A stretch of 64,000 nt of DNA from Watersipora subatra (lineage: Eukaryota; Bryozoa; Gymnolaemata; Cheilostomatida; Watersiporidae): contig NC_088714.1 in the NCBI RefSeq assembly GCF_963576615.1, positions 868,001 through 932,000 on the forward strand. The letters are read 5' to 3'. Below the pieces are notes generated by a model that saw only the letters and a list, made by a program, of their open reading frames with translations, did not search any database and was not told the origin of the DNA. Made by a program: the position numbers and the translations under genes. Every line of letters begins with the position of its first letter. The first letter of the stretch is position 1. Positions 43,249 through 61,357 of this stretch are shown one piece after another.

Positions 43249-46200
43249 TCATGTTTTTATATAGCCTACTGCTGGAAAAGATTCAGCCTTCGTCTCCTGC
43301 ATTGGAATTTGTCTGTCTATTGTGCGTCTATGGAACCAGACGTACGTGGCGATGAGAGATAACACTATAGCGGTAAGTACGGCGTAGTTAGCGAGAGCGA
43401 TATCCTTAAGATCTCTGGGAACCACTATTCCTTTTATAGTCACAGCGAATGTGGCTGACAGGTCACAGAAGCTGAAAGCAACACAAGTACAAACGTTTCA
43501 CAAGTTTTGCTAACAAAGTTTTGTTCCAGCCTTGCTGGAACATGAAGGACATACTGTAGAGATCATTGAGTGTACGCTAGACCGATAACACAAACAGATA
43601 TTATGAGGATATTGTGTGTTTAGGGAGATGACCTAAAGCTATTCTCATGGACACATTTAGACTGAGATAAGTATGGCAACAGAGTTTCATGGTCCAACCA
43701 TCGCTGACATAGAAATAGAAATAGCTGGTTGCCATACTAGCAGGTGTACATTGCACGCACCCCGACAGTCATAGATTGACATACCTTTTATACAAACACA
43801 CCTTTAGGCTGAATAATATTTTTTTACCTGCTTTGAGAATCGACTACCTTGACCTTGAATACGAGAAGTGAGTCATAGTCGTGATTGAAGGTGATGCGGT
43901 TTGGGCTGGTGTAATTGAGTACTTCATACTTAAGATGGTGCTCTTCCTCCGTGATATACTCATCATCCTCATCAAGATGGTAGCATGACATGTAATTATC
44001 CGCCCCCCACAGCTCCTCAGGCGGAAGTGAGTAGTTTGACAACTCCCTAAATCAGTGTTGTTTCACTTTGTCTTAGTTGCTTACAACAGATTTGCTGCTT
44101 AGGCGTTGAAGTAATGCGTAACCTAGCTTTAGTTCCTTTAATTAAAAGCAACTCAGCGAGTCAGGGTTCTAAACTGAAATTGTGAACTCCTGCTTAGCAA
44201 ACGTGGTGTTAGAGAGGGCCTCAAACATGTTACATGTATGTTAATATGATGCCGGGGATGATGCCGGCGACCTTTCAGTACAGCAAACTCTCACAAAGTT
44301 CTAACAATTTCTGGCCAAATCCTGTATTTACAGAAATCTAATGCTCTAGTACTACTTTCAATAAAACATTAGTGGATTCTTGTGAGAGTAAAAGTACAAT
44401 GCACCTACAGTCATGTGCAAATGTGTGGAGCCACTTGCAATAATTTAGTGTTTCTTAAATATCCATAAAACAGCACAAAAGTACAGAAACTTGGTATTAT
44501 TTTAATGCACAGAATCTCCTCTGTCTGTTTTCCTTATCCGCTAGTCTTTAAAAACAATACGCTGCTTGTTACGCTTCTAAGCAGTGTTAAATGTAAATAC
44601 TTGTTCACTTAACGCTATTTTGAGAAAATGGCACAAATGCCTAACTTTACACTGCTATAGAAGTAAAAATGTCAAACACTTGAAAAGCTTCAAATAAGTC
44701 AACACGATAGCTTGAGTGAAAGCATTAATATTAATTAATTCTTTGATTTAAATAAGAGTATCACCTAATTAGAAAGATTAAAATTTAACTCGCAAACAAT
44801 ACAGAAACATCACAAGAAAAAGTACATTTTGAAGATTAAAAATATGTGCAACTTTGCAATGTTTACATTGGTTATATCTGTATATGGCTTGTTGACAGCG
44901 AACTTTTAAATGTATGAAAAAGCGGGCGGCTCCATAGTTTTGCATATGACTTCAGATAAGCCTAGAGAGTGTAGCCTTGAACTCTCATGTGTCAACTGTT
45001 ATTACCTCATTTTACTCCAGGATTGAGCGCTTCGTAAACAAAGCATTTGCTCAGCGTTATGGGTGTACGCGTAGTCCACCCGACCATTCACTTCCCAGAG
45101 TACAAAATCTGCTTTGACTAGCTTGACAAACTTGTTGTAGTCGTACATCTCTAAAACCGGTCGAAAAGGTTCTTCATTCCCAACAAATATTGGGCAGCCG
45201 ATTTCTGCAAGCACATTTTGTAGAATAACTTAGAGTCAAGAGAGTTCCCTTTCTGGGTTAGACGGCTTTCATCATGTAACTCAAGGATGTTATAGCTAAT
45301 ATAGTAAAGCTTCACAGCTTAGCTGGTGAATTCTCACCGAGTAGTTGAAAAATTAGTGAATATTTCAACAACAAAAATAGGAAAACTGTTGCACAGTCAT
45401 TTACAACTAGTAGATCTAAGTGATGCAGAAAGCATTGGTGCAGTTTTATGTGCCTTTTATAAAGTTTATCTAAACTGAAAATTGTAACAGCTGACCTGGC
45501 ACAGGTAAGTACATGCAACAGCAGACCTGGCACAGGTAAGTACCTGCAACAGCAGACCTGGCACGGGTAGGTTCTTGCAACAGCAGACCTGGCACAGGTA
45601 GGTACATGCAACAGCAGACCTGGCACAGGTAGGCACCTGCAACAGCAGACCTGGCACAAGTAGGCACATGCAACAGCAGACCTGGCACAGGTAAGTATGT
45701 CCCTTTATTTACTATTCCCTTAAAATGCTTTCTTTTGTTATCTAGTTGATTCTAAAAATTATTCATTCTTCTTATATTTTGACGATAAGAATTGATTTTA
45801 GCTTATTCACATATTCAGGTGAGGTGATAGTTTAAGGGCAAAGTTGCATTTGGTTAATCGCTATAATTATATTATAGATGTATTTATTGCTGTAATCTAT
45901 AACATTGTTCATCACTTTAATGTATAAATTTGTTCACTTCTGTAATATATAGACGTATTAAATTACAGGGATTTGTTGAACAAGCAGTACATCCTACTAG
46001 AAACAGTTTTTTAAAAAAGTGTGACAGCAGGAAAGTTCATGCAGTTTTTAAACTCATTACAGAACAGACCACTCTAGTTCAATCTGGAGTTATTTTCTCA
46101 TGGAACAATTTTTTATTTTTTTTTATGCTTGCACGGTAGCAAAAGCGCAGTTCAATGACGATGATTTTCAATGTAATTGTGCAGCTGAATATCTACTTGA

Positions 46201-49200
46201 CTAACTATGATATAAGTTAAGGCTACAAACAATGTTTTATTATCACATCATTTTATTTATTTTATTTCAAAGATTTAGTAGTGCATTGTTTGAGATAGCA
46301 TAAAAATTGTCACAAAACCTACTCTTACTGTGAAAACAGTTCAGATTGCACTGTTATCATACATGTTTGCCTGAAACGTGTAGCTAAGAAATTTAAGCCC
46401 GTTGTAGGCAATTGTCAATCAAAATGAGTGATATTATATTATTATATTATATTGCTCGTACAAAGTCAGCCAAGTTTAATCTATTTAGGCTTTGTTTTTG
46501 TTTCTTTTTATCAAACTTGTTAAAAATGAAAAAAGCAAATGTGCAAAATTTCTCATTTTCAGTTGCTCGATGCAACATATGAGTGCATCCAATTTTTTAC
46601 ACTGTGTATATCTAATGGCAGCAGCAAAAATGTTCAGTTGGCAGCATTTGAACCCACCATTGATGGGTTAATGTTAAAGCGTTATCGTGTTAAAGCAAGG
46701 CTATACAGTGTCAATATTTAACTAATAAAGTTCATACCCTCTGGAATTTTTACAAACTTGTCTTCTTTACTTATCTTGTTGGTGATGAGATCAGCCCAGC
46801 GACCAGCTGGAATTGTATAACCATTATTATACATTGGATTTGCCTTCTCAGTGCAATTCTAAAATAAGTGGCTCAGCGTTATCACCCAACTAATTATGTA
46901 GCTGTATGTGCATACGACTCCCAATAATACTCGAGTTGAGCTAGTAGAAACAGTACAGAGGCTATTTTAATAGCTCAAATTTGATCAAAAATCATTGAAA
47001 GTGATAAAAAACTGCAAACGTATTTGACTCAAAGAATACTTTACTTGCACCTACATAACTATTGCAATGTTTAAACTTTCAATTTGAACATTCTCACCAG
47101 CATTTTGGTATGATGTTGAGAGTTTTGTAGAATGTCCTGTCACAGTGTGTGCGGTGTTACACTGTGTATGTGGTGTTACACAGTGTATGCGGTGTTACAC
47201 TGCGTATGCCGTGTTACACAGTGTATGTGGTGTTACACAGTGTATGTGGTGTTACACAGTGTATGTGGTGTTACACAGTGTATGTGGCGTTACACAGTGT
47301 ATGTGGCGTTACACAGTGTATGTGGTGTTACACAGTGTATGTGGTGCTATACAATCTGTGTAATATTAGATAGAGCATCTGGCAATATATGAGATCAATG
47401 CTTTTAGCAGTTTGTTTGGCAAAATAACCATCTAGTAATTTTGATAAGTGGTCTGCTATTTTTAACACATTTCGATAAAAGAGCACTTACATCTCCATCA
47501 GGAAGCTGAACACGTATATGTCTACCACTCGGGCATCCTACAGACATGTAAGCAACAGCGCTGTTAGGTGCTGGACAGAGTAAGTTGCTTCGCCTAGGCC
47601 TCAACTCAATAACTGCCACGCTACTGTTTGTCAGCGATTTATGAACAATGCTCGCTGCCCTGCTCGTTTCTTGATAGACAAACCTCACAGTCTAAAAGAG
47701 GTCATTGATTAAATGAAGATAGTGATTGACAATATGAACTTATAATACGATGAATACAGTCATGCAGCAAAAATATCAGCATTTGTTCATTTCAAGATAG
47801 AATATGTATGACCAAGAGAAGATTTAAGAGTTATCCGCTCATTGACTCAATATACTCAAAAGGACTCTTGTATGAATTTGCTTACTGGGTGTTGCTTGAT
47901 TAGACTATATGAATCATATTTGCGTTATCGGCGCACTACCAGAAGGCCGAAATGAAAAGTCAAATTTATGATCAGGACAATCAAACTACAATGTGTCACA
48001 GCAAGTAGAGTACTTCAGTACCTTCTATGCCGCATGTACAATACATAAACAATATATAAGAGCCTTCAAGTAGATGCTGATAATTTTAAACGAACTAGTT
48101 GAGGAAAGCTAGCATGGTGATTTAATTACAGTGCCGTCAGAAATTATGGCACCCGGAAAGAAATTTGAAACCTGACAACACCGGTTTCGGTTGTAAGGTC
48201 AATAGTTACCGGTAAGAGTCATCTGGCAAACCACCCAGATAGGTTAGGGTTTCCGATAACCAGGCAAATACTAAGCTGCTGATGTCTGTGAGTGCTGCCT
48301 CTTTGAGGTCTCCCTCAGCGAGTATATAAAATTACGCACCTCTAAGTAACTGATCTTTCAGTCGGCAGATTGAAAAGGCTTACCGTCACATTTAATAGGG
48401 TAAGAAATAAATGCAATGCTAATTTCTTTCTAAACTAGTTGGTAGGAAATCTAACCAAAACTGAACAACAAAAAGAACAAGTAAAACAAGGACAGTATCA
48501 AACAAAATTCAAAAGATCTTTCACGCTAAGTTTTTGAGTGTTTACAATGACTGGCTGCTTTGTCATCAACTTATTAGTTAAACCAGCACATCTACAGTAT
48601 ATAAATCGCAATGTTTGTTGGTCTTTTGTTTATCTCTCGCCGCGATGTCCACTTATCGTGAGTAAAATCTAGGAAAAACCTGCTTCGCACTGGAGTTGAA
48701 CTTTGATCCTCGACTTTTACAGACAGGCGCATTTCATCATTGCGCTACAACATTCAACCGCACATAGTGATGAATGATTGTCATAACATTCATCATGTTG
48801 GTTAAAATGCTCACACTTGAGTGCTCAGGGTTACTAACTAGCACTGCGTAACATAATGATTATTAAGCTGGCTTGTTTTGGCTAGTGTTTGTACAATTAT
48901 AGCACACGACTGGGGTGTTGCGGATGACGGTTAGAAGGGGCGAAATTCTGTTTGAAGTGAATTGACAAATTTAAAGTTAAAATCTTGACAAATGCTCATC
49001 TAAGCGCTTGAACTTTGTACTAGCCATTTATTTAACTTTGGAAGAAAATGTAAAAAGGGAATGTTTCAATTCCCCTAATCCTTTTCTACGAGTCTATAGC
49101 TATTCATCCTGCGTCTGCTATTCATTGAATATACAATGCAGCGATCGATCCATGCACTGCTAACAATTATATAATCTGTTGCTGGCTGTTCGCCAAATCA

Positions 49201-52200
49201 AAAAGTCAATGAATATTGTCCTATGATGTAATCATCTGACTTTGTCATGGAATTGAACAGGTTGATAAATAGTTAAAATCATTAGTGTGCTTTAAGACAA
49301 CCCAATCCTTGTTTTCTGACCATATCGTGTGGCCATATGATATGGGCATATGATATGGTCATATCATATGGCCATACGATATGGCCATATGATATGGTCA
49401 CACAATATGGCCATATCATATGGCCATATCGTGTGACCATATCGTATGGCCATATCGTGTGACCATATCATATGGCCATATCATATGGCCATATCATATG
49501 ACCATATCATATGACCATATCGTATGGCCATATCGTGTGACCATATCATATGGCCATATCATATGGCCATATCGTGTGACCACAGTATATGACTGGTATT
49601 AAATGTACTCACTATATTCTCACTCGTCACGCCGTCACGGTATATCTTCTCCGTGTCTTTGGTAAACTCTATGACATTGTGTGTGTCAGTGAAGATAAGG
49701 TCAAGGGCGTTCTGTCTATCTTGTTTGTACACAAGAAAAACCCAAAAGTGGCTCACCTCTAGCTTGTCTAGGAGGTAGACCTGTGTACATAATTGTCTGA
49801 TATACATGTATTTATGTATACAACAATGGTGTTTTATATTTGATGAGCCCTACTTATGATGAGCAGAAAGTTTAAAAGGTAAAGGATATATGTATTAATG
49901 TATTCTCCTTGAAGTACGTATCTGGTGTTTTTAAGATATCTTCACATACAAGTTGTAGAACAGCTTTCAAGCTTATGGCTTAGTAATGTACAAACCAGAC
50001 AAGTATGACAGTGCTAGTACTAGTGTACATGTACTAATAATTCTCATGTACTGCTGGGCTTTGCAGGTTGTTAGTTTTATCTGCTACTGGGTTGATTTCT
50101 GTAATAATATGTACAATCCATTTAGTCATAAGAGCTATTGAAAAGAGCTGTTCAACAGCTCTTTTCAATAGCTCATATGACTAAATGTCATATGAGCTAT
50201 TGAAAAGCTCATGTTGAAGCTAAAGGATTGTTAATGGAAGGCTCTACAAATCCTTCCATTAGAATTATGCAACATATTTTATGGCTGTGCGCCAACAAAG
50301 GGCATGGTGACCTGATTATCCATCACACGAGTGAGTTGCCAAAAACTCTGATAGACTATCATCAGCAAACACTTGAGCATGATGTCAGAGTCGTAGCAAC
50401 AGCGAAAATCACTGGATTTAAAAGTATTGTTATTCAACAGTTAATGTAGGTCATCTCCAGTTTTATGACCTTGACCTACAATCTAGTTTGTGAGATTTCC
50501 TTATAGGCCCACCAATGATGGCCTGCTACAGCCTTCAAGCGAATGAGTTCATTGTAAGTAATTCAAATACGTATTAAATTATTTTGTATAATAGGATAAT
50601 TTTATACATTTGAAAGCTTGTATAAACAACATCAAAATAACAAGCAGTTTGCAGACCGACCCTAAAGTTATCTATAGTTAACTGCATGTGCATACGATAT
50701 AAAAATATAGTTATAAATAACAATAATGAACTGTCAAGCAATAGTACGGATAACTTCACAAACGTATTGGAACAGAGAAGGTGCAGCGCATCTCAGGCAC
50801 TTGGTAACGATAGAGAGGACGTTCATTGGCCTTCATCATTCTATGCGTAGCTGCGAATATGTCTGTGATTGATGCATTTTGAATGTCTCTGAGCACCTTT
50901 CCAAATGATGTTATAAAGTGCTGTCGATAGGCATACCTTCCGTGCACAGTTGCCATAAACAGAATACAGTTATAGTCAGTGATATCAACATGGTTGATGG
51001 TACTATTAGGTACTTGCTGGGCATCAGCATCTAGATCAGAGGGATGTTCACTGACGTCTTTTTGACAGGCTTGAACTCCCACAAGCTAAATAAATAGGCC
51101 AAAGAGGTATAACAGCCTACATGGTACTAATGTGAATAGAATAACTAGAGCATAAAGTATCGCATCTATGAATATATTTACAGTATATAAAGGCAGCCAG
51201 ACATACCAGGGGAATCTCAGCCGGCACTCCTTTCCTCGCGTCATGGATGAGGTCACTGAGGGAGCCTCGCGAGCCGTCATCTGAGTGCAAGCACCCACTG
51301 CTGCCATGGCACATGACGAACACTGCCAGAATGGAAACTTCAAATTTGACTTGGTATATCTCGTCAACTAACCAGTTTCTCATTTCGACATATGACGTCC
51401 ACTCGTGGGTGTGAGTTATAAAGTTTGCGTCTTCAAGCGACTTAACTAAATCTGATGCCTCCTCATCTGCATTTTCTCTATCCTCTCGGTTGAAGCAGAC
51501 AAATGCATGCCTCTTCGCCCCTCTCAACCCTCTCAGCCCACGTGGTATCGCGTAGCTGTCCACCACCGGCAATATGATTCCGAGTTGACGCTGCGACAAC
51601 TCAGAATAGTAAGAGTTTTTCTCAAACCAAACTCTGAGCTCTTCTTCTTGGCAAACTTTACACGCTTCCAAAAGCCTGTCGTCGTTATGTTCAATCGCCC
51701 ACTCAATGACTTCCTTTTGGCTGGCTGAAACGATTAGCTGTTGATGGTCACTAAAATCTTCAGCCACAAGACGCTGCTGAAGATAAAAGAGCATTTCGAG
51801 TTTTGATGAGTTGGCAGCCAGTTGAAGAGCATTTTTATCACCGCGATTTTTTGCCAAGATCAAGCCACTTGCTTCTTCATCATTCATTTTACCTATTTGC
51901 ATCTCTATAAATCCTTGATCGTCTGGGCAACTGAGGACCGCCAGCAGCAAACCATTGTTCCCTTCATTATCTTTGTTTTTAACAGCACAAAAAAGATCTC
52001 TCTCCGTGAGCTGCTGGACGAGGAGCTCTGTAACACACTTGTTAGTAGTTACAATGGCGCACTGCAAACAGTTTTGTTGATTCAATCGGTCTTTAAACAA
52101 AATCACCTTTGACGCAGATCGGCCATTATTGTTAATAAAGGAGAGAATGTCGATAAGGAGATCTATGTCCTCTCGTTTTACTGCGTCGTGTACAATGTTC

Positions 52201-55200
52201 TCTCCTTGGTAATTTGGAAGCTCAACCAAGTATGCAACATGGCTCAGCCGTGATAGGACGCTTTCAGTGCTGGAGAAGTTTGAAGCGGCGTCTTCTCGCT
52301 CAATGCCCTCACCACATTTTCTGCTTTGCTTTTGTCCCATAGGCTTAATGAAGTGATGATCTTTAGCTAGCGTTTAACAGGAGAGAGAATGCTCGTGGAT
52401 GTTCTTGGTGCTTTAAAATGTGAAACATTTTGCGAGGCAATTCAAATTGTCAAAAGAGTGTTGAACCTGAGTCCTGAAGTGGCTAACAAAAAGTGGGAAC
52501 ATTATCATCTATACGCGTACCTATTAAGGCTGAGCTGGAATTGGCTTAATGCCAGAGAGCTCTCATTGGCTGCTTCAACACAATGAAGGCGAAGTCAATA
52601 TAGGCCAATGGAATATCCAATAGGTATTTCCAATGCATAACATCGGAAAAATGTCGATTTGCGTTGCCAATTTTCAAAGAGTGACTAGGCATTTTAGATT
52701 GTTTTGGAGGCCAATACAAATTTGACAAGTTATTACATACTTTGTATGTGCTGCCGTGCACTGCTGTCTTTTTTAAAGAACAAAGAAATTTACCTGATTC
52801 TGAATATTATGGATAAAGTATCTGTAAGGACATCGCTCGGTGAAACCAATCGCTTCCTGAAGCTCATCTCGAAGTGGGTACCTCATTTTTGTAACAGAGT
52901 TATTAGCGTACACTGAAATAGAAAGAGTGTTCATTGTCACTCTCGCCAGTGTCAAACTAGCGAATAGATTAACCAGACAGTAAATGTTGCAATAGAGTAC
53001 CTTTGATGAACCAGAGATTGTTCAAGTCATCAAACCAGTGTAAGACATTGACATTGCTTGGATTCTCAAAGATGTTTAGCATGATCAGCTCATCATTCTT
53101 GACCTGCCAGAAACAAAGTCACACTCTTCAATATTACTATCAGTCGATATGGCCTATACGGTTGATACGATCGATACGGTGAATAGGACTTAATCTTCCC
53201 TTCATCCTCTGAATAATTCTGCTATATTTTACCTTCCCTCATTGCACTTCACCAACTTTACCACCATAGGTCAGACATACATGTATATACTATCATAGGT
53301 CAGACATACATGTATATACTACCATAGGTCAGACATACATGTATATACTACCATAGGTCACACATACATGTATATACTATCATAGGTCAGACATACATGT
53401 ATATACTATGATAGGTCAGACATACATGTATATACTATCATAGGTCAGACATACATGTATATACTATCATAGGTCAGACATACATGTATATACTATCATA
53501 GGTCAGACATACATGTATATACTATCATAGGTCAGACATACATGTATATACTACCATAGGTCAGACATACATGTATATACTATCATAGGTCACACATACA
53601 TGTATATACTATCATAGGTCAGACATACATGTATATACTACCATAGGTCACACATACATGTATATACTATCATAGGTCAGACATACATGTATATACTATG
53701 ATAGGTCAGACATACATGTATATACTATCATAGGTCAGACATACATGTATATACTATCATAGGTCAGACATACATGTATATACTACCATAGGTCAGACAT
53801 ACATGTATATACTATCATAGGTCACACATACATGTATATACTATCATAGGTCAGACATACATGTATATACTACCATAGGTCACACGTGCATGTATATACT
53901 ATCATAGGTCAGACATACATGTAGATACTATCATAGGTCAGACATACATGTAAATTTACAGAGTAGTGATTCCCCAGAGTATCTGGATGTAGAGTAACTA
54001 TATGGCATTATATAGAATAGGAAGGATGTTACACTTTTTGTTTTCGCTATCAAATAGCACAATACTGAGGAATGAGAGGAAACTTTGCATAGTATATGAG
54101 ATTACTAAAGTACACACCTTTGCGCCGCATCTTTAATTTAAATTCATTGTGTGTAAATAGCATACATGTAGTCTTGTTGTATTACGCAGATTAGTTGCCT
54201 GAAAGATGTCAGCATTTGTGAATTTTAAAAGATTGAGATATTGAAATAAATAGAGTGACTTTCTATGACGTCACACACTGCAACATAGGGATCAATAAAT
54301 GAGCTCTCTGGCTGAATAGATACCTTCCCAAAGAGGATCTGGTTTGTACTAAGTAGAATAGAGAGGTCTCCTTTTTTACTGACAATCACATCCCGTATGT
54401 GCTCTCCATCTTCAACTATTTTGGTCTCCTTGCTGCAGCCATGCAGGTGCTTCAGTCCATACTTCTTACTGTCATCGTAGCTGGTATATAATGTACAGTA
54501 AATTCCCACGGTATGTACAGTACTCTAGTACACAATTAACAGTCACATGGTATATACTCTAATACACAGTTCACAGTCACATGGTATGTACTCTAGTATA
54601 CAGTTAATAGTCATATGGTATATACTTAAGTGTACAATTAACAGTCACATGGTATGTACTCTAGTATACAGTTCACAGTCACATGTTATGTACTCTAGTA
54701 TACAGTTAACAGTCACATGGTATATACTTAAGTGTACAGTTAACAGTCACATGGTATATACTTAAGTGTACAGTTAACAGTCACATGGTATATACTTAAG
54801 TGTACAGTTAACAAGATATCAAGAGCAAAAATAGTAGCTGGTTACCTGTAGAATAAGTTTCGTTCATTTCGAAAGTAGAAACTGGATTTCGCTAAACCCA
54901 AGAAATAAAATGAAATCCTGCCAACATCCATTGTCTTAAAATCCACCCAAAATGGTGCCAAATCCCAGGTGTTCAGCAGGTAGTCATGAATGGCAAACAG
55001 CACCTAAAAAAAATTCATGCTTGTCTTAGATTCAATGCTGCCAATACTAATGTAGATGCTAACTCAAACAGTAAAGAGAATATTACCGAGGATATTAACG
55101 AGAAGAGTAACGTGAAAACTGACAGTGTAAGACAAATGTCATCAACACAATAGAATAAAACCTCTTGTTGGTCAGACATCCTGCTTCAACTATAGAATGC

Positions 55201-58200
55201 GGTTTAATGCCCACGACTTACTGTAAAAAATACAAGCAACAATATATCAGTACATCAGTACGTCAGTACGTCAGGACGTCAGGACGTCAGTACGTCAGGA
55301 CGTCAGGACGTCAGTACGTCAGGACGTCAGGACGTCAGTACGTCAGAACGTCAGTACGTCAGTATATGAGTACGTCAGTACGCCAGTACACCAGTACACC
55401 AGTACATCAGTACATGAGTACAGTTTTGCGATGAACTTTCAGTTTATTCTTTAGGGTTTCTTTTGAAAGATGCAAACTTTAATGAGTTAAACTTGTCAGT
55501 CTCATCGCTGTGATTTCCCATGTAGGAGATACATGTAAGTAGTAAGTTATAAATATTGTCTCATTACCTTATTTTCATTGCTGAAAGTCAGCCTGATGGC
55601 AATTCCAATCCTGCCAGGGAGAATGTCAAGACTAACGTATAAGACCTCATAGGTAAAAGAGGCACCCATGGCCAACTCTTCTAGCCTCTCCATTGGCAGC
55701 TTCAGCCTGGTGGGTGGCCGGAGGCTGTTCGAGACCCAAACAGTGCTGCCATTCGTCATTGTAAGTAGGTCAACCTTAACATTGTTGTACAGACCTTGAA
55801 CACACCAGCTGTGTGATGCTATCTTATTTGGCTTGACCTCAGCGGGAACTGCAATATAATCATGGAGTTGGGAATATTGAAAGTATATGGAGTATCTGCT
55901 ACTCCAAAACATGGTTTGTTTGCATTGCTGAAAGGTAACATTTCAAGCACCTGCTGTGTATACTACCGAGGGCACTCATTGAAGCACCTGCTGTGTATAC
56001 TACAGTGAGCACTCATTGAAGCACCTGCTGTGTATACTACAGTGAGCGCTCATTGAAGCACCTGCTGTGTATACTACAGTGAGCGCTCATTGAAGCACCT
56101 GCTGTGTATACTACAGTGAGCGCTCATTGAAGCACCTGCTGTGTATACTACAGTGAGCACTCATTGAAGCACCTGCTGTGTATACTACAGTGAGCGCTCA
56201 TTGAAGCACCTGCTGTGTATACTACAGTGAGCGCTCATTGAAGCACCTGCTGTGTATACTACAGTGAGCGCTCATTGAAGCACCTGCTGTGTATACTACA
56301 GTGAGCAATCATTGAAGCACCTGCTGTGTATACTACAGTGAGCGCTCATTGAAGCACCTGCTGTGTATACTACAGTGAGCGCTCATTGAAGCACCTGCTG
56401 TGTATACTACAGTGAGCGCTCATTGAAGCACCTGCTGTGTATACTACAGTGAGCACTCATTGAAGCACCTGCTGTGTATACTACAGTGAGCGCTCATTGA
56501 AGCACCTGCTGTGTATACTACAGTGAGCAATCATTGAAGCACCTGCTGTGTATACTACAGTGAGCGCTCATTGAAGCACCTGCTGTGTATACTACAGTGA
56601 GCGCTCATTGAAGCACCTGCTGTGTATACTACAGTGAGCGCTCATTGAAGCACCTGCTGTGTATACTACAGTGAGCGCTCATTGAAGCACCTGCTGTGTA
56701 TACTACAGTGAGCGCTCATTGAAGCACCTGCTGTGTATACTACAGTGAGCGCTCATTGAAGCACCTGCTGTGTATACTACAGTGAGCGCTCATTGAAGCA
56801 CCTGCTGTGTATACTACAGTGAGCACTCATTGAAGCACCTGCTGTGTATACTACAGTGAGCACTCATTGAAGCACGTGCTGTGTATGCTACAGTGAGCAC
56901 TCATTGAAGCACCTGCTGTGTATACTACAGTGAGCACTTATTGAAGCACCTGCTGTGTATACTACAGTGAGCGCTCATTGAAGCACCTGCTGTGTATACT
57001 ACAGTGAGCACTCATTGAAGCACCTGCTGTGTATACTACAGTGAGCACTCATTGAAGCACGTGCTGTGTATACTACAGTGAGCACTCATTGAAGCAACTG
57101 CTGTGTATACTACAGTGAGCAATCATTGAAGCACCTGCTGTGTATACTACAGTGAGCACTCATTGAAGCACCTGCTGTGTATACTACAGTGAGCGCTCAT
57201 TGAAGCACCTGCTGTGTATACTACAGTGAGCGCTCATTGAAGCACCTGCTGTGTATACTACAGTGAGCACTCATTGAAGCACCTGCTGTGTATACTACAG
57301 TGAGCGCTCATTGAAGCACCTGCTGTGTATACTACAGTGAGCGCTCATTGAAGCACCTGCTGTGTATACTACAGTGAGCGCTCATTGAAGCACCTGCTGT
57401 GTATACTACAGTGAGCACTTATTGAAGCACCTGCTGTGTATACTACAGTGAGCAATCATTGAAGCACCTGCTGTGTATACTACAGTGAGCGCTCATTGAA
57501 GCACCTGCTGTGTATACTACAGTGAGCGCTCATTGAAGCACCTGCTGTGTATACTACAGTGAGCGCTCATTGAAGCACCTGCTGTGTATACTACAGTGAG
57601 CGCTCATTGAAGCACCTGCTGTGTATACTGCAGTGAGCGCTCATTGAAGCACCTGCTGTGTATACTACAGTGAGCGCTCATTGAAGCACCTGCTGTGTAT
57701 ACTACAGTGAGCACTCATTGAAGCACAAACTGTAGAGACTGTATAGTTGGTTAGACAGAAAGAAATATTATTATCACGGAGTACAATATCCAGCCTCTAT
57801 CAGTTAGTTCCACTCCTTTTTTCTTTAGAATAAAATCTAGTACGTATAACGTTCACGAATAACTGCACTGCTATAGAATAAGATTAGACAGGACATTATA
57901 TTCTAAAATTGTAACTTTAACTAGCAAAAACAAAGGATTGAGTAAAACCAATGCATGCTGGTTAAATGTTTCCTGTCTTGTATACATAATTCCATTGTTC
58001 TTGTTTTTAGGAATTAGCCAACAATATTTTAAGCGAGAGTTATCTTAGCTTGTTTTTCTTGTTTATTATCTATGCCCTGCTGGATATCATTAGTAATGAA
58101 GACGTACCATTAAATCTTTGGAACATAGAGTCATTTACTCCGAGGTAGTAGATGTCATTCTGTTCGCCAAGCACGATGATATAGTTGAACATCATGGCCA

Positions 58201-61200
58201 CCCCAGTGACATTTAAGTTTGTTTGGAATCCTTCGGGAGCCGGGAGAAGGGTGATGGTAGCAAAGTCATCTTGTGTTATGTAGACCTTTTCTCTCACAAT
58301 CACTAGGGCGATGTTTGCCTGTGAGATACATTAGTTAAGATTAGCAGCTGACAAAGGAATGTAGAGCGATCAGTGAACGCTCGTGTTTAATTGAAACTGA
58401 GTTGTCTGCCCTCGTGTGAACAGTGTGTTAAGGGCGTGTAATAGAGTGCTGTAGAGCCCCTTAGATTGTGCTTACTCACATGACACGGGTTTGGCAGCAA
58501 CGCAAGGGCCTGCGTATCTTTCCCAGCCATGTAATACTTTGGTGTACCTCCTGTCAACTGTTTATAGCTTATGTGGAGAGACGCTATCAAACCGTCCCTA
58601 AATACAAACCAGTGGGCTATTTAGACTCTCAGACTTGAGGTTAAAATAAGTTTGTGCAGAAGAAGCATTACGTTATATAATAAACACTCTGCACTTTGAC
58701 TTCTCAAAGAAAAAAAGCTGCTCATAGTCGTGTTTTAATTTCCAATTGACTAAAAAGATTGTATCTAGCATACGGAGCCACTTCATACAAATACCTTCAG
58801 ACAGAGGAATGCTTATCGTTTTATACTATTGAAATTAAGTTCACTGACGAGTTTAGAAAACGATTTCAGCTAGATGTTTAGGCCTGGTGTATGTTTGTGG
58901 AGCATAGCTATGAAGTGGGCGATCAAGTATGCCAGATAGTCTGTTAGACGACAGAAGTTCAGAAATATCGAAAGTTTATTGAGCCCATGGGTCTCAAAGA
59001 AAACCCCCTAAACACACCAGACATAAGCATTACGCCCATCCTATATCTAGAACAACCTGATTGATATCGTAGGAATTTATTTTGTAAATGTTATTGATTT
59101 CCTTCCTGTGATTATTTTTTTGCACAGCCTGATTTGCTTTTATTGGCCAGTGCAACAGAGTGATAATCAAATCAAAATTTGAGCTCCCCAAAGAAAAACG
59201 GTGAGCCAACATTTGCTTACTTGCCTTCACTTGCTTAAGCATTATTAAATTTAGCTTGTTAAACGGAGGTTTGTCTTCTCACAAATACTATTTGGATGGT
59301 CCCAGTTATCCTTACACTGCTTGATGTTGTGTCTTTGGATCAGTTAGTTAGTTTCAACTTGGCAAAGGCAGGTGTAAAAGTCAATCTCATAACGGTCCTC
59401 TATGAGGTCCACTAAGTCGAATACAAGTGAAGGTAGTTTAGTACGAGTCTTACCTGACGAAACAGCTGTAAAGTGCGATTGGATGGCCTGTGATTGAGTA
59501 ATAAGGCATCCTGATACTTTCGCCTGTTCTGTCGATATCCACCGCAAACAGCCAATAGCCTTCCGTCCGCTCAAACCGCAATAGTTTAGCTCGTTGTTTG
59601 GCAGGGCCGCTGCTCAACCAGGACATGCGGATAACTTTCGGCATTTGACCCATAATCTGATATTCAATTGTAAGCAGCCTTGAGTGCTGAAAGAAAGCAG
59701 GGAGAGAGTGCGAGACAATGGTGGCTAATAACTAGTAATCAGCGTTCGGCTAGACTAAAGTTGCTTGAGAAATGTGGCTAATATTGGTGATATATCAGAG
59801 ATCATTAGGCAGTTATAGCTGTTCTTCTATGGTGGTCAGTTATTCCGAGACTTCTAGCCAATCAACAGTTAGCTATTTCTAATCATTTAGCCAGCAACAA
59901 ATCAGCTATATCGAACCATTCAGTCAATCACCAATCAGTCGTTACGAACCATTCAGCCAATCAACTGTTTTGAATCGTTCATCCAATCACCAATCAGCTA
60001 TTTCTAATCATCCAGCCAATAAACAGTCAGCTGTATTGAAGCGCCAGTTGAACTCACAATCAAACCATCAAAGTAAATTTGGCATTTATTTATTTTAGTT
60101 TATAAAAAGAATTTATCTGTTATGGAGGCCACAACTATGCGCCTCTGACTGACCTATTTATTAAGTGGCCTTTTCTCCACCCTATTCTTGATTTTATAAT
60201 TCTAACTATGATAGCATAGGCTTTATAGCCTGAGCACTCACATAGGACGGAGAGGTGGCAGAGTCAGAGAGTTCGCTATCGCTAGCATGCTCGTCATTGT
60301 ATATCCACACTTTTAACAATTGGTGATTTGGGTCACTAGGTCTTCCGTGCTGTCAAAATATTTTTTCAGATATGTCAAATTTCACTGGAAGATAAATAAG
60401 TTTTCAAACAGTTTCTACAAAACTGAAGCCAGTAGATATCTCATTTTAAGTAACAAACAAAGGAGATCAGTAATTTAGTTATAACTAACCCAGCTGTTCC
60501 AACATGTTGCTTAAAAGAAAGAGGTGCTTTGAATTCCCTCTTAACAAAGAGGAGACAATTTCATAGCAATGCTACTCATTTGTTTGATCTTATTTTCTTC
60601 TAGTTAGTTATAATTATTATTATTATTATGCAATAAATAATGTTAAAGCTAAGTAAATAACTTATAAGTAATATAGTATAATTGGTTGTTGTTTATAACT
60701 ATGAATATAAACAATTATTAATATCATTATAATTATTATTACTAGTTGGTTATAATTTTGCTATAAATAAAGTTAAAGCTGAGTGAATAACTTATAAGTA
60801 ATATAATAATAATAAGTAGTGTTTGCTGTTCCAACACAAAGATGGTATTAAATTCTGACCGTTGGGTTATGCGTGGGTGTTATGCTGAGATACCAGTTGT
60901 AACACTCGAATGTGGTGTAGAACTTTATCTGTCTTGTCTTATTACCAACCCCTTTGACATCTAAGTCAATTGCATGTATGCCTTTGTTCAGACATCTAAG
61001 GAAAGTAACCTGAAATGATTACCCTTGAGAGAAGAAAAACGTGCTAACTGAAGGATAAAGCGTCTTTAAATTTGAACTGTGATATCATAAAAAAAACTTG
61101 AGAACATTTTTGACAGTTTGAGTTACAACAATAGAGGTTACCTTTCCTTTATTATGGCTCAAAATACAAGTAGGCGCCGTCCACAAAAGGTCGTCATCAT

Positions 61201-61357
61201 TAATGTTGCTCGTATTGGCGCCAAGAAACTCTAACTCAAGTGTGTCTCGGGTTGTTGAGCTTGAACCATGTCTCTGCGGTCTAGTAAACCTCCAAGTAAC
61301 CAGCTCTGATTCAACAGCGGCAACAATTGTCAAGCTAACCATAATATTTAGTATCAT
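43249..61357 (-). CDS. CATSPERE: CatSper auxiliary subunit epsilon, 17 coding exons
   Basis: Coding exons in transcript order: 61142-61357, 60860-61009, 60242-60349, 59454-59686, 58480-58597, 58108-58318, 55568-55848, 54846-55003, 54279-54480, 53001-53103, 52794-52912, 49613-49780, 47491-47691, 46738-46858, 45006-45204, 43828-44046, 43249-43471. Codon phases agree at every junction, giving 1009 aa (human CATSPERE is 951). A signal peptide (MILNIMVSLTIVAAVES) is followed by a large extracellular region and a membrane segment at about 961-982 (YAVLTAIVLSLIATYVWF), then a short basic tail. Family blocks: KGIHAIDLDVKG, ERCPYRYF, SVGCPSGRHI, IGCPIFVGNEEPFRPVLEMY, VLWEVNGRVDYAYT, LPPEELWGADNYMSC and SFCDLSATFAV. 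The last four align with human epsilon better than with delta or beta. It should sit in the sperm-flagellum CatSper calcium channel. Weakest junctions: the donors of exons 2 and 9. A separate gene lies in intron 11. Confidence 0.93.
44408..44953. mobile_element. Tc1/mariner-like MITE in CATSPERE intron
   Basis: The left end CAGTCATGTGCAAATGTGTG follows TA. The right end is its imperfect inverted copy (complement GAAGTCATATGCAAAACTATGGAGCC). Both share a GGAGCC-C core about 20 bases in. About 545 bp of AT-rich interior without a transposase frame. The ends have diverged, so it is old. Confidence 0.6.
45485..45692. repeat. 31-bp tandem array, about 7 copies
   Basis: Unit AACAGCAGACCTGGCACAGG followed by TAAGTACATGC, in CATSPERE intron 14 (45205-46737). 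On the plus strand, which is antisense to the gene, several units contain CAG/GTAAGTA, an ideal splice donor. Confidence 0.93.
46630..46705 (-). repeat. Possible tRNA-derived SINE fragment
   Basis: The minus strand reads TTTAACACGATAACGCTTTA ... GGTGGGTTCAAATGCTGCC, with a B-box (GGTTCAAATGC) and a weak A-box. It lies in CATSPERE intron 14, just before exon 46738-46858 on the plus map. Confidence 0.35.
47139..47355. repeat. 19-bp tandem array, about 11 copies
   Basis: Unit GTGTATGTGGTGTTACACA. It lies in CATSPERE intron 13 (46859-47490), close to exon 47491-47691. The open frames through it are periodic. Confidence 0.93.
48118..48150. mobile_element. Single mariner-like end
   Basis: TTACAGTGCCGTCAGAAATT followed by ATGGCACC resembles a Tc1/mariner terminus (TA plus CAGTGCC...ATGGCACCC). 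No partner end was found nearby, so this is a fragment or a chance match. It lies in CATSPERE intron 12. Confidence 0.3.
48670..48755 (-). repeat. tRNA-derived SINE, copy 2
   Basis: On the minus strand: TTGTAGCGCAATGATGAAAT ... AAAGTTCAACTCCAGTGCGA, then AGCAGGTTTTTC. A-box and B-box spacing is tRNA-like, and the tail matches the copy at 41480-41570 base for base at most positions. Confidence 0.65.
49317..49580. repeat. Palindromic AT-rich array of ~13-bp units (CATATGGCCATATC)
   Basis: Units such as GCCATATCATATG, GCCATATCGTGTG and ACCATATCATATG follow one another. Most are self-complementary over CATATG or ATATGGCCATAT, so either strand can fold into many alternative hairpins. The array ends about 33 bases from CATSPERE exon 49613-49780, downstream of its donor. 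Confidence 0.85.
50130..50215. repeat. Compound inverted repeat (AGAGCTATTGAAAAGAGCTG)
   Basis: AGAGCTATTGAAAAGAGCTG is followed by its complement after a few bases, then a third partial copy (GAGCTATTGAAAAGCTC) with an inverted TCATATGAC spacer. A strong hairpin in CATSPERE intron 11, downstream of the nested caspase gene. Between 50216 and 50755 I see nothing else, and no clear AATAAA for the caspase gene. Confidence 0.75.
50756..52340 (-). CDS. Ankyrin-repeat caspase with predicted N-myristoylation, nested in a CATSPERE intron
   Basis: Two exons, 51207-52340 and 50756-51085, joined in phase 0 (ctg/GTATGT donor, tttatttag acceptor), give 487 aa. The start is the first ATG after an in-frame stop at 52374-52376. 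Residues 1-9, MGQKQSRKC, fit the MGxxxS myristoylation consensus with a following basic run and a Cys. About residues 48-240 hold four or so degenerate ankyrin repeats (GENIVHDAVKREDIDLLIDI, NQQNCLQCAIVTTNKCVTEL, GDKNALQLAANSSKLEMLFY). About 276-398 is a caspase p20 domain, with catalytic His345 in FVMCHGSSG and Cys385 in VGVQACQKD. An Asp-rich linker (DLDADAQQV) follows. About 412-487 is p10, with ATVHGRYAYRQ (Arg432 at the S1-pocket arginine position of the usual SWR) and C-terminal MRCTFSVPIRL. The standard QACRG is QACQK here. The family is clear; substrate specificity and activity are not known. Likely role: cell death or immune signalling at a membrane (inference). Confidence 0.88.
53268..53951. 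repeat. 29-bp tandem array, about 23 copies, with higher-order blocks
   Basis: Unit CATAGGTCAGACATACATGT followed by ATATACTAT. The variants CACACATAC, ACTACC and ACTATG recur together about 290 bp apart, showing block duplication of ten units. It lies in CATSPERE intron 9 (53104-54278). Confidence 0.94.
54505..54812. repeat. 34-bp tandem array, about 9 copies
   Basis: Unit ACAGTCACATGGTATATACT followed by TAAGTGTACAGTTA. It lies in CATSPERE intron 8, between exons 54279-54480 and 54846-55003, filling nearly all of it. Confidence 0.92.
55238..55425. repeat. 8-bp tandem array of ACGTCA-containing units
   Basis: AGTACGTC and AGGACGTC alternate about 22 times, decaying to AGTACACC at the right. 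Each unit supplies an ACGTCA half-site of the cAMP-response element type. It lies in CATSPERE intron 7 (55004-55567). Confidence 0.92.
55942..57726. repeat. 37-bp tandem array, about 48 copies
   Basis: Unit ATTGAAGCACCTGCTGTGTA followed by TACTACAGTGAGCGCTC. Most variation is at one site (GCGCTC, GCACTC, GCAATC, GCACTT), and the order of variants repeats in blocks. The array is about 79% of CATSPERE intron 6 (55849-58107). On the transcribed strand each unit contains CAGCAGGTGCTT. Confidence 0.95.
60600..60815. repeat. Two copies of an AT-rich ~120-bp segment
   Basis: Segments containing AATAATGTTAAAGCTAAGTA / AATAAAGTTAAAGCTGAGTG and AACTTATAAGTAATATA are repeated about 120 bp apart in CATSPERE intron 2. 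Imperfect copies, origin unknown. Confidence 0.6.

What the first reader, a model, noticed from the sequence alone, without database searches (positions are those of the whole stretch)
50756..52340. A caspase gene lies inside a CatSper epsilon intron on the same strand
The two-exon caspase gene sits wholly within CATSPERE intron 11 (49781-52793), between exon 11 (52794-52912, ending HNIQNQ) and exon 12 (49613-49780, starting VYLLDKLEV). These two exons join in phase 0 and read continuously as CatSper epsilon protein. Same-strand nesting means a CATSPERE primary transcript must carry the whole caspase sequence and splice around it, so the two genes could be coupled in testis or, conversely, interfere. 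The nested gene has its own start, its own intron and an upstream in-frame stop.
Basis: partly seen in the sequence, partly recalled or inferred. Interest (0 to 1): 0.8.

Follow-up and report, generated by a model that had tools for sequence, protein, structure and literature searches.

The report
Caspase gene nested inside CatSper-epsilon intron
In an unnamed animal, a small, apparently intact protease gene of the caspase family sits inside an intron of a sperm calcium-channel gene and points the same way; such nesting is known elsewhere, and whether it links the two genes is untested.

Summary
The host is a complete CatSper-epsilon gene (CATSPERE): minus strand 61357-43249, 1027 aa, no internal stop in my model, mouse CatSper epsilon at E 5e-63. 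Exons 52794-52912 and 49613-49780 join in phase 0 around a 3,013-base intron. On the same strand, this intron holds a two-exon, 487-aa caspase-domain gene (ATG 52340, stop ending 50756) with catalytic His and Cys and both putative substrate-pocket arginines. It has no close copy in the genome, but belongs to a divergent caspase family: all seven relatives fetched share its phase-0 intron four codons before the catalytic motif; six ordinary caspases examined do not. It is therefore probably not a retrocopy. Same-strand nesting is a known minority arrangement (76 of 296 simple human pairs, by subtraction). No transcripts could be examined, so coupling or interference in testis is conjecture. The host intron lacks sense-strand AATAAA and ATTAAA: a post hoc, weak hint. 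Verdict: real, a new example of a known kind, modest interest.

The parts
51207..52340 (-). Nested caspase coding exon 1: N-terminal region of about 260-275 aa (no Pfam family; weak ankyrin-like hint) plus large-subunit part of the caspase domain with His345
51086..51206 (-). Phase-0 intron of the nested gene (GTATGT...TTTAG), at the same codon as in all 7 fetched relatives
   Evidence: its acceptor is weak on the host-derived matrix (1.2)
50756..51085 (-). Nested caspase coding exon 2: small-subunit part with Cys385 (VQACQKD) and Arg432 (YAYRQ), stop codon
49781..52793 (-). Host CATSPERE intron that contains the caspase gene; no AATAAA or ATTAAA on the sense strand
52794..52912 (-). CATSPERE exon immediately upstream of the host intron
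49613..49780 (-). CATSPERE exon immediately downstream of the host intron
43249..61357 (-). CATSPERE gene from a signal-peptide-like start (MILNIMVSLTIVAAVES, judged by eye) to stop; 17 exons plus one possible 20-nt microexon; 1027 aa
57851..57870 (-). Putative 20-nt CATSPERE microexon needed to keep frame between exons 58108-58318 and 55568-55927; weak splice signals
50601..50606 (-). Nearest variant poly(A) hexamer (TATAAA), starting 150 bases below the last base of the caspase stop
   Evidence: function not tested

Best explanation
It is a genuine, independent, same-strand nested gene: an intact divergent caspase of a small family scattered over at least four chromosome-size contigs of this genome, lying in one CATSPERE intron. 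Shown from sequence: the anatomy, the open frames, the retained catalytic residues, and the family-specific intron. Inferred: it has its own promoter in the 453 bases between the host exon and its ATG, or in host sequence above; it is transcribed as its own two-exon mRNA ending at a weak poly(A) site (TATAAA, 150 nt below the stop); and full CATSPERE transcripts remove it with the 3-kb intron. It probably got there as a genomic DNA copy or move, because it keeps the family's intron. The protein is predicted to be a proteolytically active caspase with a non-CARD, non-DED N-terminal region and an N-terminal MGQKQS that fits the myristoylation consensus (recalled), so possibly membrane-tethered.
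For: Both genes are complete and open. His345 and Cys385 fall in MCHGSSG and VQACQKD, and Arg288 and Arg432 align with caspase-8 DRN and SYRN. Coding bias is in the right frame, clearly for exon 1. The upstream stops and the lack of a strong in-frame acceptor argue against fusion to the host. All seven fetched relatives (C5, C8 and five on C10) show a phase-0 intron with donor after K and acceptor four codons before the catalytic Q/D-A/T-C, as in the nested gene (there the donor follows L). Six of six ordinary caspases examined run through KPKLLIxQAC without it. No close copy elsewhere: the next hit is 36% over 89 aa.
Against: No transcript evidence at all. The acceptor of the nested intron is weak on the host-derived matrix (1.2 against 5.7 or more). 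The coding bias of exon 2 is small (0.047). No canonical poly(A) hexamer follows the gene within the host intron, so independent 3' end formation is unproven. A good acceptor-like site exists at 52466 above the ATG (8.4) and one inside exon 1 at 51724 (9.4, wrong frame).
Confidence: 0.8

Rival explanations
1. The caspase exons are an alternative 3' part of CATSPERE transcripts: host exons splice into them, giving a fused or two-frame message that ends inside the intron.
For: Same strand. An acceptor-like site at 52466 scores 8.4, within the range of host acceptors, and an in-frame one at 52061 scores 5.2.
Against: From 52466 the frame that continues the host meets two stops before the caspase ATG. 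The 52061 site scores below each of the 16 host acceptors used for the matrix and would drop the first 93 residues. The gene has its own ATG in its open frame, and relatives on other contigs have the same exon layout.
Confidence: 0.1
2. The nested copy is a recently silenced or non-expressed insertion with no effect on either gene.
For: No transcripts could be seen; divergent from all relatives found; no canonical poly(A) hexamer in the host intron.
Against: Open over 487 codons at 20-38% identity to the relatives aligned, with the catalytic and pocket residues kept. Long neutral drift would have broken it.
Confidence: 0.07
3. Processed retrogene that later gained an intron.
For: Only one coding intron; the C10 relative L014 appears to have a second one.
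Against: Its single intron is at the same codon and phase as in all seven fetched relatives.
Confidence: 0.05
4. Assembly misplacement.
For: None found.
Against: The contig is 66 Mb; each intron flank matched only here, apart from a self-match within the local hairpin.
Confidence: 0.02

Closest known systems
Nested protein-coding gene pairs of human and mouse (Assis 2021, PMC8467205; passages read)
   Same: An internal gene wholly within one intron of an external gene; same-strand pairs exist (76 of 296 human and 55 of 248 mouse simple pairs, by subtraction from the opposite-strand counts)
   Different: [quoted passage not shown] Here the internal gene keeps an intron and it is the host that is presumed sperm-specific (recalled)
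Caspase-8 (PDB 1i4e, 6x8h)
   Same: Best caspase matches in the PDB; His, QACQ motif and aligned arginines
   Different: Weak similarity (E 0.02-0.03 with the domain alone; 0.09 with the whole protein); no DED found; different N-terminal region; possible N-myristoylation site
C10, C5 and C8 divergent caspases of the same genome (L014, L031-L036)
   Same: Unusual N-terminal region plus large subunit, then the phase-0 intron before the catalytic Cys motif
   Different: C10 members are clustered; L014, L032 and L035 have repeat-rich N-termini and L014 a further intron; the C5 member carries a PHD finger behind the caspase domain
CatSper epsilon of mouse (7eeb_H)
   Same: Domain order, and a hydrophobic C-terminal stretch that aligns
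   Different: Diverged sequence; hosts a nested caspase gene. Whether the mammalian gene hosts anything in the matching intron was not tested

Membership tests
Caspase (Peptidase C14) | Match to the family profile above its curated cut-off | tested here: met
   34.6 bits against 21.4
Caspase (Peptidase C14) | Catalytic His and Cys in HG and QAC motifs | tested here: met
   His345 (CHGSSG), Cys385 (VQACQKD); aligned with caspase-8
Caspase (Peptidase C14) | S1-pocket arginines (roles recalled) | tested here: met
   Arg288 and Arg432 align with caspase-8 arginines in DRN and SYRN (weak alignment, E 0.019)
Caspase (Peptidase C14) | Caspase fold | tested here: inconclusive
   Single-sequence model of exon 1 only; mean pLDDT 44, about 54-72 over residues 281-378; no fold search made
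Caspase (Peptidase C14) | Cleavage after Asp, self-processing | not testable with these tools
   Needs an assay
Initiator caspase | CARD or DED prodomain | tested here: not met
   No CARD or DED in residues 1-276 at E up to 10, though HMMER's filters drop most matches above about 0.1
CatSper epsilon | CATSPERE-specific domains in order and shared D/E C-terminal domain | tested here: met
   Above cut-off: NTD2 (44.3 against 27), beta-propeller (27.8 against 27.1), CATSPERD-E_C (120.6 against 27.4). Below cut-off: NTD1 (23 against 27), Ig-like (25.9 against 28.3). PDB 7eeb_H E 5e-63
Nested gene | Complete coding region inside one intron of another gene | tested here: met
Nested gene | Independent transcript | not testable with these tools
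   No RNA data
Processed retrogene | Absence of the parent family's introns | tested here: not met
   Keeps the family intron at the same codon and phase

The most novel reading that the evidence does not exclude
The nesting couples the two genes: a membrane-tethered, testis-expressed caspase (possible N-myristoylation, no death-fold prodomain found) is produced from the CATSPERE locus in competition with CatSper epsilon. Intronic polyadenylation or promoter firing would switch between the protease and the channel subunit during sperm formation, and the missing sense-strand AATAAA/ATTAAA in the host intron would be selection to let full CATSPERE transcripts pass.
Probability: 0.08. Interest if true: 0.6.

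Novelty: new member of a known kind. Interest (0 to 1): 0.3.

Why it matters
Same-strand nesting is the less common arrangement, and PMC8467205 suggests that selection purges it (passages). A host gene presumed to be needed only in sperm (recalled), with an intact protease gene inside it, gives a clean place to ask how transcription passes through a nested gene. The gene also shows that some unusual caspases of this genome form a scattered family marked by a shared intron. If the two genes are merely neighbours in space, it is an ordinary curiosity.

Tried and rejected
Rejected: processed retrogene origin (the intron is shared with relatives) and assembly error. A transposon carrying the gene is not supported: neither flank was found elsewhere in the genome, although the search skips simple repeats and very common words.

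Led nowhere: AlphaFold of exon 1 without an alignment was too poor for a fold search, which I did not run (mean pLDDT 44), so the ankyrin-like hint (TRPV3, PDB 4n5q, E 0.08) stays unconfirmed, and Pfam reported no ankyrin repeats. The bacterial promoter scan has no bearing here. Searches for caspases with unusual domain architecture and for myristoylated or membrane-anchored caspases gave listings that I did not follow up. Of the regions fetched, L037 proved to be a reverse-transcriptase-like reading frame (by eye) and was dropped before the 7 of 7 count. L001 and L008, the other two of the first eight caspase loci, have the catalytic Cys replaced (DAS, DAN) and were left out of the 6 of 6 count of ordinary caspases; they too show no intron at that place. 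The six are a small part of the 158 matching stretches.

Own slips: one search translated the wrong frame (redone). One search lacked the microexon and so lost frame midway (redone). One search read minus-strand loci in the wrong orientation (redone for L002-L007). One search used a wrong CATSPERE start coordinate for its codon table (redone; its shuffle count is unaffected). In one search the third and fourth rows were only the last parts of their proteins, the fourth has mistyped letters within its first few residues, outside the caspase domain, and exons were joined by eye.

Full report
Host gene. Reading the minus strand, I built a CATSPERE model from 61357 (ATG; signal-peptide-like start, by eye) to the stop at 43249: 17 exons plus one possible 20-nt microexon, 1027 codons, no internal stop. 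It matches mouse CatSper epsilon in PDB 7eeb over residues 21-308 and 466-1002 (E 5.2e-63). It also hits five CATSPERE Pfam domains in order, three of them above cut-off (NTD2, beta-propeller by 0.7 bits, D/E C-terminal) and two below (NTD1, Ig-like). The genome holds one further locus with the CATSPERD/E C-terminal domain. The microexon (57870-57851) is needed to keep frame before exon 55927-55568, but its splice signals are poor, so that stretch of the host model is uncertain. It does not touch the intron in question.

Nested gene. Exons 52794-52912 and 49613-49780 join in phase 0 around an intron of 3,013 bases. Inside it, on the same strand, lies a 487-codon gene: exon 1 52340-51207, intron 51206-51086, exon 2 51085-50756, with an in-frame stop above the ATG. 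It is a caspase by profile (E 2.1e-8). His345, Cys385 and two arginines align with caspase-8; this sequence match is weak (E 0.019), and that these arginines form the S1 pocket is recalled. 0 of 5000 single-base shuffles of exon 1 gave so long a stop-free run. The codon-usage score is best in the coding frame for both exons, clearly for exon 1 (0.17 against at most 0.118 in other frames) and marginally for exon 2 (0.047 against at most 0.034). The first 276 residues have no Pfam family; the only listing was an unrelated one at E 0.096. A TRPV ankyrin stretch was hit at E 0.08 only, and the structure model there is unusable. The start MGQKQS fits the N-myristoylation consensus as I recall it; this was not tested.

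Family and origin. The whole protein has no close copy in the genome; the next hit at E up to 0.01 is 36% identical over 89 aa on C10. Searching with that relative and with the caspase domain alone led to C5, C8 and a C10 cluster. In all 7 of the 7 caspase relatives that I fetched (L014, L031-L036; an eighth region, L037, was a reverse-transcriptase-like frame and was dropped) a phase-0 intron sits at the same codon, four codons before the catalytic Q/D-A/T-C motif, as in the nested gene. These splice sites are read from sequence, not from RNA, and in L032 and L035 a second AG six bases on would serve as well. In 6 of 6 ordinary caspases examined (L002-L007, from C6 and C9; 158 matching stretches are known in all), the frame runs through KPKLLIxQAC without an intron there. 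The nested gene is therefore a member of a divergent, scattered family and kept its intron, which argues for copying or moving as DNA. When it entered the intron cannot be told here.

Can the host splice into it? With a matrix from 16 of the host's own acceptors, which score 5.7-15.3 on it (flattered, as they made it), candidates above 3 in the right frame and below the upstream stop score at most 5.2 (52061). A better site at 52466 (8.4) leads into two stops above the caspase ATG. A fused protein is thus unlikely but not excluded. The acceptor of the caspase's own intron scores only 1.2 on this matrix; it rests on the shared position in relatives and on the open frame.

3' end. The host intron has no AATAAA or ATTAAA on the sense strand. 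A first-order Markov model of the intron gives a mean of 3.6 and P(0) 0.026; the other 16 host introns hold 28 in 12,012 bases, but 6 of the 16 also hold none; the antisense strand of this intron holds 3. The test was thought of after looking, about half of the intron is coding, and one of the other introns with none is long (1,923 bases, largely minisatellite by eye), so this is a hint only. The nearest variant signal of the ten hexamers searched is TATAAA at 50606.

Known context. [quoted passage not shown] In the passages of PMC3192792, nested genes are reported to cause intron retention, exonization and cryptic polyadenylation in hosts, and 53 of 158 human protein-coding nested genes of an earlier survey are given as tandem before the authors' own re-evaluation. 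A search for a caspase gene nested in an intron in invertebrates found no paper holding all four terms. One for CatSper with Lophotrochozoa found three papers with one or two mentions of CatSper each (listing only), one for CATSPERE with invertebrates found six, none of whose titles concerns nesting (listing only), and two on nested genes listed 13 and 15 papers, none with CatSper or caspase in its title (listings). I thus found no report of this pair in that library, which lacks most subscription journals. That caspases act without killing in Drosophila spermatid individualization is recalled; 44 papers hold the terms (listing only). It makes a sperm role conceivable but is no evidence for it here.

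Verdict. It is a real same-strand nested gene pair by sequence, a new member of a known kind. Functional coupling is open.

Noticed in passing
L031:2291-4276 (G000:C5 about 34239790-34241775): A relative of the nested caspase whose second exon runs on from the caspase domain into a PHD finger (PF00628 E 1.9e-6). It could be a caspase-PHD fusion or a piece of a retroelement that carries such a finger.
   Followed up: partly
G000 C6, C8, C9, C10: Very large expansion of caspase-domain genes: 158 matching stretches, exon by exon and a lower bound (150 of 494 candidates scored), many in clusters.
   Followed up: partly
L014:1945-4578 and L032:827-3217: C10 caspases have an N-terminal exon built of near-identical repeats of about 80 codons (by eye); in L014 some are read in a shifted frame within the one open frame.
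   Followed up: no
L001, L008: Caspase-like frames on C3 and C2, without a stop across the match, with the catalytic Cys replaced (FFDASFG, YIDANSQ): likely inactive homologues.
   Followed up: no
window:50119-50207: Short near-perfect hairpin repeats (arms of 34 nt at 97% and 21 nt at 100%) in the host intron below the caspase; no other place reported in the genome.
   Followed up: partly
window:53265-53952, 54521-54813, 55247-55421, 47141-47346, 49320-49573: Five CATSPERE introns in 47000-56000 carry minisatellites (units 29, 34/102, 8, 19 and 13 nt); a further long array at about 55960-57720 was seen by eye.
   Followed up: no
window:63367-63522: Last exon of an unidentified same-strand gene just upstream of CATSPERE (IWSIDLSKTESL...KKRCH, stop); no Pfam match.
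   Followed up: no
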